Shown here: piece after piece, positions 3,404-64,000 of the stretch
How the letters are laid out: every line of letters begins with the position of its first letter
Numbering within the stretch: position 1 is the stretch's first letter
Assembly (NCBI RefSeq): GCF_900091585.1
Contig: NZ_FMHT01000003.1
Coordinates: 1,907,501 to 1,971,500 of the forward strand
Length of the DNA: 64,000 bases
Source: Micromonospora nigra
Lineage (GTDB): Bacteria; Actinomycetota; Actinomycetes; Mycobacteriales; Micromonosporaceae
Direction: 5' to 3'
Translations under genes and position numbers: made by a program
Notes under the pieces: model-generated
What the model saw: only the letters and a program-made list of their open reading frames with translations
Databases searched by the model: none
What the model was told of the DNA's origin: nothing

Positions 3404-4357
3404 TCAGGCTGTGTGGTCGACGACGACCTTGCCGAAGACGTCCCCCGAGTGCAGGCGCGTGAACGCCTCCGTCACCCGGCTGAACGGCACCACGCTGTCC
3501 ACCACCGGGCGCAGGCCCCGCTCGGCGCAGAACGCGAGCAGCTCGGTCAGTTCGGCCGGGGTGCCCATCGAGGTGCCCAGGATCTCCAGCTGCATGGCGA
3601 AGACGCGACGCAGGTTGACCGCCGGCTCGTGCCCGGAGGTGGCGCCGGAGACGACGATCCGGGCCATCGGGGCGGCCGACTTCAGCGAGTGGTCGAAGGT
3701 GGCCGCCCCGACCGTCTCGACCACCACGTCCACCCGCTCCGGCAGCCGCGCCCCGGGCTCCAGCGCGGTGGCCCCGAGCGCGGCGATCCGCTCCCGCTTG
3801 GCGGCGTCGCGGCTGGTCGCGTACACCCGTTTGCCCATCGCGACGGCGAGGGCGACGGCGGCCGTGGCCACGCCACCGCCCGCACCCTGGACGAGCACGG
3901 CGTCGGCCTCGGCCACCCGCCCCTTGGTGGTGAGCATCCGCCACGCGGTCAGCCACGCCGTGGGCAGGCAGGCCGCGTCGGCCGGCGTGAGGCCCGCCGG
4001 CAGCGGCAGCAGGTTCGACCGGGGTACGGCCACCCGCTCGGCGAGCGTGCCGGGGAAGTGCTCGGAGAGGATGGACACGCCGCGCGGGTCGCCCGGGGTG
4101 ACGACCACCGGGTAGACGACCACCTCGTTGCCGTCCGGGTCGACCCCGGCGGCGTCGCAGCCGAGGATCATCGGCAACTGGTCGGCGCGGAGCCCGACCC
4201 CGCGCAGTGACCACAGGTCGTGGTGGTTGAGCGAGCTTGCGGTGACCTGCACGGTCACCCAGTCGTCGTCCGGGTGGACGGGCTCGGGCCGGTCACCGAC
4301 GGTGAGGGCGGCGAGCGGGTCGGTGTCGTCGAATCGGGAGGCGAAGGCGGCACGCAT
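3404..4357 (-). CDS. Quinone-oxidoreductase-like MDR family dehydrogenase
   Basis: Medium-chain reductase of about 317 residues. An N-terminal GroES-like fold (SSLNHHDLWSLRG, LGCDAAGVDPDG) is followed by a Rossmann domain with VQGAGGGVATAAV near residues 140-155. The catalytic and structural zinc cysteines of true alcohol dehydrogenases are not seen, so an NADPH-dependent quinone or enone reductase is more likely than an alcohol dehydrogenase. I start at ATG 4357 (MRAAFAS); a GTG at 4366 would add three residues. It lies downstream of the malic enzyme gene on the same strand but behind a hairpin, so it is probably transcribed separately. Substrate unknown. Confidence 0.87.
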   Translation of the reverse strand: MRAAFASRFDDTDPLAALTVGDRPEPVHPDDDWVTVQVTASSLNHHDLWSLRGVGLRADQLPMILGCDAAGVDPDGNEVVVYPVVVTPGDPRGVSILSEHFPGTLAERVAVPRSNLLPLPAGLTPADAACLPTAWLTAWRMLTTKGRVAEADAVLVQGAGGGVATAAVALAVAMGKRVYATSRDAAKRERIAALGATALEPGARLPERVDVVVETVGAATFDHSLKSAAPMARIVVSGATSGHEPAVNLRRVFAMQLEILGTSMGTPAELTELLAFCAERGLRPVVDSVVPFSRVTEAFTRLHSGDVFGKVVVDHTA

Positions 4358-62450: not shown

Positions 62451-63794
62451 TCACCGCTCGGCCGGCACGGTGTCCAGCGCAGTCAGCGCGGCCAGGCCCG
62501 GGGCCACCCGTTCCGCGTCGCCCAGCACGACGGTGACCGCCCGGGACGGAGCCAGGTAGCGGGCCGCCGCCGCGGCGACGTCGTCCACGGTCGTCTTCGC
62601 CAGCCGGGCCGCGTGCTCGGCCAGGAAGTCCAGACGCAGCCCGTTGCCGGCGTAGGCACTGGTGAGCGAAGCCAGCCCGGCCTGGGTCGACATGCCGAGC
62701 TGGAGGGTGCCGAGGGCGTACTGGCGGGCCTGTTCCAGCTCGTCGGGCTTCGGCGGCAGCGTGGCCAGCCGACCCAGCTCGTAGCTGGTCTCCAGCAGGG
62801 CCGGCGCGGTCACCTCGGTGGCCACGTCGGCGGCGGCGACCAGCACCGAGCCGGCCACCGAGTGCTCCACCAGGGAGTGCGGCCCGTACGTGTAGCCCTT
62901 GTCCTCCCGGATGTTCTCCACCCAGCGGGAGGAGAAGTAGCCACCGAAGACGAGGTTGGCCAGTTGCAGGGCCGCATGGTCGGGATGGGTACGGGGCACC
63001 GCGGGCAGCGCCATCCGCAGCGAGGACTGCACCGCGCCCGGCCGGTCGACCAGCAGCAGCGGACCCGGCACCAGCGGCGGGGCGGGCGGCAGGTCGGCGA
63101 CGTGCCCGGCACCGTTCCACCCCCCGAGGGCCTTCTCGGCGGCGTCCAGGGCACGCTCCGGCTGCACGTCACCGACCAGCACCAGCACCGCGTCGGCCGG
63201 ATGCACCCGCTCGGCGTGCAGCTTGCGCAGCGCCGCGGGACGCACCGCGTTCACCTGGTCGGGCTCGGGGGTCTGCACCGCGTACGGGTGAGCGCCGTAG
63301 ACACGGCGCAGCAGCGCGGTGCGGGCCAGGTGCGAAGGCTGGCTGCGGGCGACCTGGATCCGGTCGACCAGCCGGTCCCGCTCCGTGCCGACCTCGTCGC
63401 CGGGATAGGTCGCGCCGGTGAGCACCTGCCCGAGCAGGTCGAGCATCCGGTCGAGCCCGGTCACCAGGCCGGCACCGGAGAGCATCAGCCGGTCGGGGTC
63501 GATGCCGGCGGACAACCCGCCGCCGACCGTCTGTAGTTCGGCGGCGAGCCGCACGCTGGACAGCGTGTCGGTGCCGGAGAGCATCGTCTGCGCGAGCATC
63601 GCGCCCCGGGCCAGGTGAACCCGGCCGAAGGGCATCCAGAGCCGCAGCTCGATCAGCGGAACGGCGGGCCGGCGGACCGCGATCACGGTCAACCCGTTGC
63701 CGAGTCGCCGCTCGGCCTGCTTCGGCAGCTTCAGCCGGCGGGTGGGGCCGAGCGGCGGCAGCGTACGCGGACCGGCCTGGACAACTGCACTCAC
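62451..63794 (-). CDS. M16 metallopeptidase, non-catalytic R/Y subunit
   Basis: A 447-residue M16 (pitrilysin/processing-peptidase) protein. The place of the zinc motif HxxEH holds AMLAQTMLSGT, so it cannot bind catalytic zinc, whereas RWVENIREDKGYTYGPHS near residue 300 keeps the Arg-Tyr pair that positions substrate. It should form a heterodimer with the catalytic M16 protein encoded just upstream, whose end is in the window. GTG 63794 overlaps the stop of a 20-codon repeat ORF as GTGA. Normally the two M16 genes would be directly coupled. Confidence 0.92.
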   Translation of the reverse strand: MSAVVQAGPRTLPPLGPTRRLKLPKQAERRLGNGLTVIAVRRPAVPLIELRLWMPFGRVHLARGAMLAQTMLSGTDTLSSVRLAAELQTVGGGLSAGIDPDRLMLSGAGLVTGLDRMLDLLGQVLTGATYPGDEVGTERDRLVDRIQVARSQPSHLARTALLRRVYGAHPYAVQTPEPDQVNAVRPAALRKLHAERVHPADAVLVLVGDVQPERALDAAEKALGGWNGAGHVADLPPAPPLVPGPLLLVDRPGAVQSSLRMALPAVPRTHPDHAALQLANLVFGGYFSSRWVENIREDKGYTYGPHSLVEHSVAGSVLVAAADVATEVTAPALLETSYELGRLATLPPKPDELEQARQYALGTLQLGMSTQAGLASLTSAYAGNGLRLDFLAEHAARLAKTTVDDVAAAAARYLAPSRAVTVVLGDAERVAPGLAALTALDTVPAER

Positions 63795-63853
63795 TGAACC
63801 ACCTTCGTTCGCGACTGCGGGGCTCGCAAACCCGGCTCACTCCTCGCACTCAC
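63791..63853 (-). CDS. Repeat mini-ORF 2
   Basis: A 20-codon ORF, MSARSEPGLRAPQSRTKVVQ, within the second repeat unit in transcription order. Its GTG overlaps the stop of mini-ORF 1 and its TGA overlaps the GTG of the M16 gene, both as GTGA. AAGGTGG in the previous unit is a usable ribosome site. The peptide is basic and has no known motif. It may simply be a coupling device rather than a functional peptide. Confidence 0.55.
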   Translation of the reverse strand: MSARSEPGLRAPQSRTKVVQ

Positions 63854-63912
63854 TGAACCACCTTCGTTCGCGACTGCGGGGCTCGCAAACCCGGCTCACT
63901 CCTCGCACTCAC
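63850..63912 (-). CDS. Repeat mini-ORF 1
   Basis: Identical 20-codon ORF in the first unit. Its GTG at 63912 overlaps the stop of the upstream catalytic M16 gene, and its stop overlaps mini-ORF 2. GGGAGGTGG, inside the end of the M16 gene, precedes it. Together the chain lets ribosomes pass from one peptidase gene to the next through two short peptides. Confidence 0.55.
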   Translation of the reverse strand: MSARSEPGLRAPQSRTKVVQ

Positions 63913-64000
63913 TGGCGGCCACCTCCCGGGACGATCTCGACGGACGCGCGGCGCTCCGGCCGCAGGGTGGCGGCGGCGGCACGGACCTGCTCCTCACCGA
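63909..64000 (-). CDS. M16 metallopeptidase, catalytic partner, 3' end only
   Basis: Only the last 29 or so codons are in the window, ending EEQVRAAAATLRP then RRASVEIVPGGGRQ and stop. The Pro-Glu-Arg/Arg-Ala-Ser-Val-Glu-Ile pattern is that of M16 C-termini, and catalytic and R/Y M16 genes commonly lie in this order, so it is taken as the catalytic subunit. The zinc motif itself is outside the window and cannot be checked. Confidence 0.7.
   Translation of the reverse strand, partial: GEEQVRAAAATLRPERRASVEIVPGGGRQ

What the first reader, a model, noticed from the sequence alone, without database searches (positions are those of the whole stretch)
63788..63914. In-register tandem mini-ORFs inserted at a translational-coupling site
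Two identical 59-bp units lie between two M16 peptidase genes. Each unit is a 20-codon ORF (GTG to TGA is 63 nt) that overlaps its neighbours by four bases, so the period of 59 keeps every stop/start overlap as GTGA. Each unit also brings its own AAGGTGG. Deleting both units would restore a direct GTGA overlap between the peptidase genes. I see no transposase, target duplication longer than the CAGTGAGTGC boundary, or second copy elsewhere in the window. It looks like a repetitive element that spreads by using stop/start overlaps as landing sites without breaking coupling.
Basis: partly seen in the sequence, partly recalled or inferred. Interest (0 to 1): 0.85.

Follow-up and report, generated by a model that had tools for sequence, protein, structure and literature searches.

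The report
MIRU-like mini-ORF repeats between genes
Short repeated DNA units sit exactly where one bacterial gene stops and the next starts, each adding a tiny reading frame that could hand the ribosome on; they resemble the MIRU repeats of mycobacteria but have an unrelated sequence.

Summary
Two identical 59-bp units (minus strand, 63795-63912) lie between two M16 peptidase genes; each is a 20-codon ORF overlapping its neighbours by GTGA. The genome has 40 matches at 23 places (E<=5e-5), 20 of them, by reading, directly before an NTGA start codon. 121 of 121 sampled genomes of the genus carry the unit, and 95 of 200 of the family. Lengths keep the reading frame: 104, 28 and 3 arrays with remainder 2, 0 and 1 mod 3. 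About 7 bp (NNN-NTGA) are duplicated. It behaves as a small mobile element that keeps translational coupling, as published for mycobacterial MIRUs (PMC12548453, citing Supply 1997). MIRU-type units fetched here share the architecture but no detectable sequence similarity: a new MIRU-like family. Mover unknown; the genome has no Y1 transposase or reverse transcriptase match. Translation of the mini-ORF is inferred.

The parts
63854..63912 (-). Unit 1 of the repeat (59 bp), next to the upstream M16 gene
   Evidence: R1 match 68.3 bits
63795..63853 (-). Unit 2 of the repeat (59 bp), identical to unit 1
   Evidence: R1 match 68.3 bits
63850..63912 (-). Mini-ORF 1, GTG to TGA, 20 residues
63791..63853 (-). 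Mini-ORF 2, GTG to TGA, same 20 residues
63909..63912 (-). GTGA: stop of upstream M16 gene / start of mini-ORF 1
63850..63853 (-). GTGA: stop of mini-ORF 1 / start of mini-ORF 2
63791..63794 (-). GTGA: stop of mini-ORF 2 / start of downstream M16 gene
63858..63864 (-). AAGGTGG, SD-like motif carried by unit 1
   Evidence: an SD-like motif in 217 of 257 unit tails (no control made)
63799..63805 (-). AAGGTGG, SD-like motif carried by unit 2
63870..63908 (-). Imperfect hairpin of unit 1 (unit positions 5-43), predicted
   Evidence: covariation of positions 6/42 over other units; in the window's own units this pair reads T-G
63811..63849 (-). Imperfect hairpin of unit 2 (unit positions 5-43), predicted
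62451..63794 (-). Downstream M16-family protein gene (447 aa)
   Evidence: PF05193, PF00675
63909..64000 (-). 3' end of the upstream M16 peptidase gene (437 aa, runs out of the window)
   Evidence: L160:5410-6723, PF00675 and PF05193

Best explanation
The pair is one locus of a dispersed mobile repeat (units of about 54-62 bp) of Micromonosporaceae that works like a mycobacterial MIRU. A unit enters at an NTGA stop/start overlap. Its own GTGA becomes the stop of the upstream gene and the start of a 20-codon mini-ORF. Its tail supplies a Shine-Dalgarno-like motif, and its end is an NTGA that closes the mini-ORF and starts the downstream gene. A ribosome leaving the upstream gene can then reinitiate unit by unit, so the operon keeps its coupling and the insertion is nearly harmless. 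Once in, arrays lengthen or shorten by local duplication. Shown by sequence: dispersal, register, junctions with and without units, a short duplicated stretch, the frame rule, likeness of neighbouring units. Inferred: that ribosomes translate the mini-ORF, that coupling is kept, and that the unit moves actively. Unknown: the enzyme.
For: 23 places in the own genome; 121 of 121 genus genomes; 95 of 200 family genomes, 25 of 44 genera. Of 191 distinct arrays, 15 were cut or lacked flank; 161 of the other 176 have NTGA at the first unit and 48-69 nt after the last unit start. Of 149 arrays already chosen for NTGA at both ends, 127 close and open ORFs of at least 80 codons, control 595 of 5000; coding frames inferred from GC phase give 85 of 140 upstream stops in the unit's TGA, control 83 of 4000. 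65 of 110 M16 junctions have no unit and all 65 a direct NTGA overlap; other pairs. At least 27 occupied/empty changes on the tree, 14 forced by well-supported branches. Duplication: in 95 arrays outside M16, positions -1 and -3 exceed all 1000 shuffles, -2 is reached by 19, nothing downstream. Lengths mod 3 (remainder 2 / 0 / 1): 104 / 28 / 3, without the 59-mers 37 / 28 / 3. 253 of 257 units keep the frame, none has a premature stop. An annotated record puts one gene's stop and the next gene's start exactly at the unit's borders, 59 nt apart.
Against: No expression, ribosome profiling or transposition data. Units are related by descent, so the frame counts are not independent events. The occupied/empty flips could partly be exchange of whole junction alleles between species, or decay: five of the 65 zero-unit junctions hold what looks like a piece of a unit (by reading; counting them as occupied gives 28 changes, leaving them out 26). 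Occupied M16 sites end in GTGA in 37 of 39 readable cases while 40 of 64 readable empty ones are ATGA (pairs test), which a plain target duplication does not explain. Minority copies break the pattern: 7 arrays without NTGA at the first unit and 8 without one after the last, one in frame inside a gene (L055), one in the own genome not at a start (4152706-4152790), four units of frame-breaking length. No mobilising enzyme was found.
Confidence: 0.82

Rival explanations
1. The unit inserts anywhere; selection removes nearly all insertions except those that leave gene expression intact, so NTGA junctions are survivors and not targets.
For: The frame rule suggests that selection acts on reading frame. 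In-gene insertions do occur when in frame (L055; helicase-like gene in L280).
Against: 20 of 23 own-genome places are directly before an NTGA start (by reading); neutral intergenic sites, which selection would also tolerate, hold few. I made no count of available neutral sites.
Confidence: 0.3
2. Occupied and empty junction alleles spread mainly by homologous recombination between species, with local duplication and decay; new sites are rare and the element is largely immobile today.
For: Within one clade several occupied alleles share flank variants that empty sisters lack, and GTGA stands where empty sisters have ATGA. Some zero-unit junctions look like remnants.
Against: The same unit lies at many unrelated genes, which needs non-homologous movement at some time; tails differ between clades at the M16 site.
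Confidence: 0.3
3. A conserved leader peptide or attenuator that regulates particular operons.
For: A 20-codon ORF with SD-like motif; a predicted imperfect hairpin with one strongly covarying pair.
Against: Presence flips between related species. The genes behind it are unrelated (Pfam: M16, Carboxyl_trans, AAA_26, Ham1, PGK, PafC, FeS assembly, amino acid kinase, POR). Codon positions are equally conserved (0.955, 0.942, 0.937), so the peptide is not under visible selection.
Confidence: 0.05
4. A REP/RAYT-type or IS-derived MITE mobilised by a Y1 or DDE transposase.
For: Small, dispersed, hairpin-forming in prediction, short duplicated target.
Against: No PF01797 match in the genome. The two ends are not inverted repeats of each other; the predicted hairpin (positions 5-43) stops 16 nt short of the right end. 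DDE transposases were not searched.
Confidence: 0.1

Closest known systems
Mycobacterial interspersed repetitive units (MIRU; Supply et al. 1997, seen only as cited in PMC12548453, PMC2734929 and PMC3635867)
   Same: Short tandem units at start codons; an internal ORF couples to the gene at -4 nt (review passage). MIRU-type units fetched here: 53-bp period in one tandem (2 mod 3), ATGA at both ends, mini-ORF closing in the ATGA.
   Different: No sequence similarity to the window's unit (744 of 1000 shuffles score as well); 59 bp instead of 53; mostly GTGA instead of ATGA; other host family.
   Same: Core GAGGAGTGAGC...GCGAGCCCCGCAG matches the window's unit (0 of 1000 shuffles); tandem, dispersed.
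   Different: By reading, five of ten printed places begin at or contain the stop codon of the gene before, without a clear coupled start behind; one is in frame inside a UvrD-like gene.
REP/BIME elements with RAYT (general description recalled)
   Same: Small dispersed repeats with a hairpin.
   Different: No Y1 transposase match in the genome; placed at coupled starts.
Rickettsia palindromic elements (recalled, no call)
   Same: In-frame insertion into coding sequence, as in L055 and L280.
   Different: Those sit inside genes; this one sits mostly between coupled genes.

Membership tests
MIRU | Interspersed tandem units of about 40-100 bp (PMC2734929 passage) | tested here: met
   periods 54-62 bp, 1-4 units per array in 140 arrays; runs of six evenly spaced matches in G112 and G012; 23 places in the genome
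MIRU | Inserted at start codons with an internal ORF coupled at -4 nt (PMC12548453 passage) | tested here: met
   architecture only; coupling itself not measured
MIRU | Copy number differs between relatives | tested here: met
   0 to 4 units at the M16 junction in 110 genomes
MIRU | MIRU sequence | tested here: not met
   no similarity to a MIRU-type unit; the MIRU identity of that unit rests on recall
MIRU | Mycobacterial host | tested here: not met
   Micromonospora, Salinispora, Plantactinospora and one 'Micromonosporaceae bacterium' in the 80 listed of 120 stretches
REP/RAYT | Y1 (RAYT) transposase in the genome | tested here: not met
   0 matches to PF01797 in the own genome
MITE | Terminal inverted repeats | tested here: not met
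   by reading: predicted hairpin does not reach the right end
MITE | Target-site duplication | tested here: met
   NNN-NTGA, about 7 bp as an average over arrays
MITE | Autonomous partner with the same ends | not tested
   no systematic search for longer elements was made

The most novel reading that the evidence does not exclude
There is a class of genomic parasites defined by a coding rule and not by sequence. At least two unrelated lineages (MIRU in mycobacteria; this family in Micromonosporaceae, with a distant relative in another actinobacterial family) independently became near-neutral at NTGA junctions by carrying a start, an open frame, an SD and a length of 2 mod 3. Their insertion may be guided by the translating or terminating ribosome complex, or by the mRNA, and not by a DNA motif alone.
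Probability: 0.2. Interest if true: 0.8.

Novelty: new variant of a known kind. Interest (0 to 1): 0.56.

Why it matters
MIRUs are known mostly from strain typing of mycobacteria (from the papers seen in part: PMC2734929, PMC3635867, PMC4128351); how they move and whether their mini-ORFs work is open as far as I could see. A second family, found in each of 121 sampled genomes of one genus, with empty and occupied alleles at one junction, makes both questions testable in laboratory strains. It is also a caution for annotators: units of length 0 mod 3 can be read as N-terminal extensions of the next gene, and no gene was listed over the unit in the one annotated record looked at (that gene table is incomplete).

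Tried and rejected
Rfam scan of the junction: one chance-level match. Strong RNA structure: one of four folded units is better than shuffles (z -2.0; the others 0.5, 0.7, -0.1). Phage origin: no match in 50,697 phage records at E 1e-5. Plasmid spread: one record with a match; the features listed near it are ordinary metabolic genes. Y1 transposase and reverse transcriptase: no match in the genome. Homology to a MIRU-type unit: none. Class-level matches other than L280 are single or weak and were not followed further (L281-L284; L282 could be a real distant copy). Literature for a Micromonospora version: searches (at least 3 of 6 terms, 15 of 765 listed; at least 2 of 6, 12 of 728 listed; sequence strings, 20 of 37 listed; at least 4 of 6, 2 of 2 listed): nothing on this element in the listed titles and abstract starts; supplements and most subscription papers were not searched. 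MIRU searches. Of papers I saw passages of PMC12548453, PMC2734929, PMC4128351 and PMC3635867, and no whole text.

One search repeats both with a stricter exclusion and only arrays with one NTGA; position -2 became weaker, the rest stands. Searches use the 157 arrays already chosen for NTGA at both ends.

Full report
What is there. On the minus strand between 63912 and 63795 lie two identical 59-bp units. The upstream gene (437 aa, PF00675 and PF05193) ends with TGA inside the first GTGA; the downstream gene (447 aa, PF05193 and PF00675) starts with the last GTGA at 63794. Each unit reads GTG to TGA as the same 20 codons and carries AAGGTGG before the next start. Within the window two partial patterns of the unit occur nowhere else at up to 3 mismatches, with 0 expected.

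Dispersal. The window is G000:C3:1907501-1971500. A sequence model (R1) built from 20 distinct units of this genome gives 54 matches at E<=1, of which 40 at E<=5e-5 in 23 places. By reading, 20 of the 23 are followed directly by a start codon inside NTGA; the exceptions are 4765685 (no NTGA in register, the downstream frame runs through), 2596896 (ATGG) and 4152706 (no start). Weaker, degenerate copies (E 0.002-0.02) lie at further junctions: in L153 ORFs end at 1659, 5473, 8261 and 12212 beside four such stretches, and new ORFs follow. In the genus (g1, unnamed; presumably Micromonospora) 121 of 121 genomes have matches (counts per genome saturate because only 46 candidates were scored). In the family 95 of 200 genomes, 25 of 44 genera. 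In the order 17 of 150, all but one in the family, the exception a single match at E 8.8e-4. In the class 11 of 296, eight of them outside the family and weak, best E 6.6e-6. An exact core pattern over the phylum: 2 of 396 genomes, both of this genus.

Register. Over loci (150 distinct arrays, of which 140 passed the score, start and flank filters), with coding frames inferred from GC phase, 85 of 140 have the upstream frame ending in the unit's own TGA, against 83 of 4000 random GTGA tetramers; 107 of 140 are followed by an NTGA start 44-72 nt after the last unit start; 6 were too short and 4 ambiguous downstream; 1 is followed by a gene on the other strand. Over all loci including the M16 junctions there are 191 distinct arrays of at least 30 bits; 15 were cut or lacked flank, 7 lack NTGA at the first unit, 8 lack one after the last unit, 161 have both. 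For the 157 arrays so chosen, 149 have enough flank: 134 close an upstream frame of at least 80 codons, 142 open a downstream one, 127 do both; control 595 of 5000 for both. An annotated record puts the stop of a lysophospholipid acyltransferase gene and the start of a glycerol-3-phosphate dehydrogenase gene exactly at the borders of one unit, 59 nt apart.

Junctions without the unit. The M16 gene was found in 121 of 121 genus genomes. I took 110 junctions (30, 80; 11 genomes not taken): 65 hold no unit, 22 one, 16 two, 5 three, 2 four. In all 65 the upstream stop TGA lies in an NTGA whose N starts a frame that stays open into the downstream gene; the same is true of 8 of the 45 occupied ones, where the units are in frame. 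Most of the 65 read like GGAGGTGCCCGATGA, but five (L179, L235, L242, L259, L269) hold what looks like a piece of a unit. On a tree of the flanks occupancy changes at least 27 times, 14 forced by well-supported branches; 28 if the five count as occupied, 26 without them. The tree is a quick one with 38 of 107 inner branches poorly supported. Other sites show the same, e.g. L118 occupied against L030 without. The flips can be new insertions, losses, or exchange of alleles.

Target duplication and the N base. In 95 arrays outside M16 with a single NTGA, bases -1 and -3 before the first and last NTGA agree more often (59 and 45) than in any of 1000 shuffled pairings (means 30.3 and 25.5); -2 is reached by 19 of 1000, -4 by 93, -7 by 31, -13 by 34; nothing downstream of NTGA stands out (the earlier, looser test with 130 arrays is). 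So on average about 7 bp are duplicated. At M16 the base N is A in 40, G in 20 and T in 4 of 64 readable empty sites, but G in 37 of 39 readable occupied ends (6 unreadable). In 14 independent pairs G goes with occupancy in 7.9 and against it in 0.2 on average (median p 0.008, range 0.002-0.125). Either GTGA sites are preferred or insertion brings GTGA to both ends; I cannot tell.

Frame rule. With one NTGA per array, the length from the last unit start to NTGA is 2 mod 3 in 104, 0 in 28 and 1 in 3 of 135 arrays; without the common 59 it is 37, 28, 3; outside M16 it is 75, 17, 3 of 95 (26 further arrays have more than one NTGA). Of 257 units (in arrays chosen for NTGA at both ends) 183 close exactly in NTGA, 70 stay open in frame into the next unit or gene, 4 are 1 mod 3, none has a premature stop; 217 have an SD-like tail, without a control. 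Units with the 5-bp shorter core mostly have a 2-bp longer tail (core 40 with tail 16 in 24 of 36; core 45 with tail 14 in 113 of 201). All counts are of related sequences. Codon positions are equally conserved in 65 distinct 45-nt cores (0.955, 0.942, 0.937), so I see no selection on the peptide; the strongest covarying pair of all columns is 6/42 (CG 53, TA 10, CA 1, TG 1), a stem pair of the hairpin predicted, though it may reflect few events.

Array growth. Tails of inner units agree at 0.94 (36 pairs), inner with last at 0.64 (57), units of different arrays at 0.43. Arrays therefore seem to grow by local copying.

Exceptions and relatives. L055 holds one unit in frame inside a gene whose relative L080 lacks it. 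Genome G657, of another family of the class, has 18 matches (E<=1) to its own tandem repeat, whose core matches the window's unit (0 of 1000 shuffles). By reading the ten places printed, five begin at or contain the stop codon of the gene before (L307, L308, L309, L314, L318), two lie between genes before an ATGA start (L316, L317), one is in frame inside a UvrD-like gene (L306, same place as L280), two are unclear (L311, L313).

Known kind. A 2025 review (PMC12548453, passage read) states that MIRUs insert at start codons so that their ORF is coupled with -4 nt spacing and that this likely limits harm, citing Supply et al. 1997, which I have not seen. PMC2734929 (passages) gives 40-100 bp and 41 locations in one genome; PMC4128351 (passages) a 77-nt class I MIRU; PMC3635867 (passages) that most are intergenic and thought to be transcribed in operons. 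A recalled 18-nt MIRU core, searched in 298 genomes of the order, hit 4: three in family f8 and one single match in the window's genus. In the f8 loci printed, units carry ATGA at or near both ends in most; the one tandem (L329) has a 53-bp period and a mini-ORF closing in ATGA; that they are MIRUs rests on my recall of the core. That unit shows no similarity to the window's (744 of 1000 shuffles as good). Works like a MIRU: yes, in architecture. Is a MIRU by sequence or host: no.

Verdict. It is a new sequence family of a kind described in 1997. The mover, the role of translation and the cause of the NTGA preference remain open.

Noticed in passing
L280 / L306 to L319 (genome G657): A tandem repeat family with the same core in another actinobacterial family, several copies at stop codons, one in frame inside a UvrD-like gene; at L317 a stretch like ATGAG.ATCGA stands on both sides of the unit.
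   Followed up: partly
L055, around 3600-3680: One unit inserted in frame (60 nt) inside a protein gene whose relative in L080 lacks it.
   Followed up: partly
L153 (G000:C3:3318300-3332200): Four degenerate copies at ORF junctions (ORF ends 1659, 5473, 8261, 12212) of one operon-like stretch, suggesting old insertions that decayed in place.
   Followed up: partly
L166 / L024 (G000:C3:1130226-1130361): Units whose first base triplet is GGG, so that by GC phase the upstream frame reads on through them: a C-terminal extension and not a new start.
   Followed up: no
L013 (G000:C3:4765685-4765855): Three units behind a response-regulator-like gene (by reading its translation), where the downstream frame runs open through the last unit; MIRU were first described in a two-component operon (title of Supply 1997).
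   Followed up: no
L179, L235, L242, L259, L269 and L150, M16 junction: Apparent pieces of units with deletions that still end in NTGA, in species without (five loci) and with (L150) an intact unit.
   Followed up: partly
M16 junctions: In one clade several occupied alleles have the flank GTTCG or GTTAG before the unit while most empty sisters have GCCCG, a hint of allele exchange between species.
   Followed up: partly
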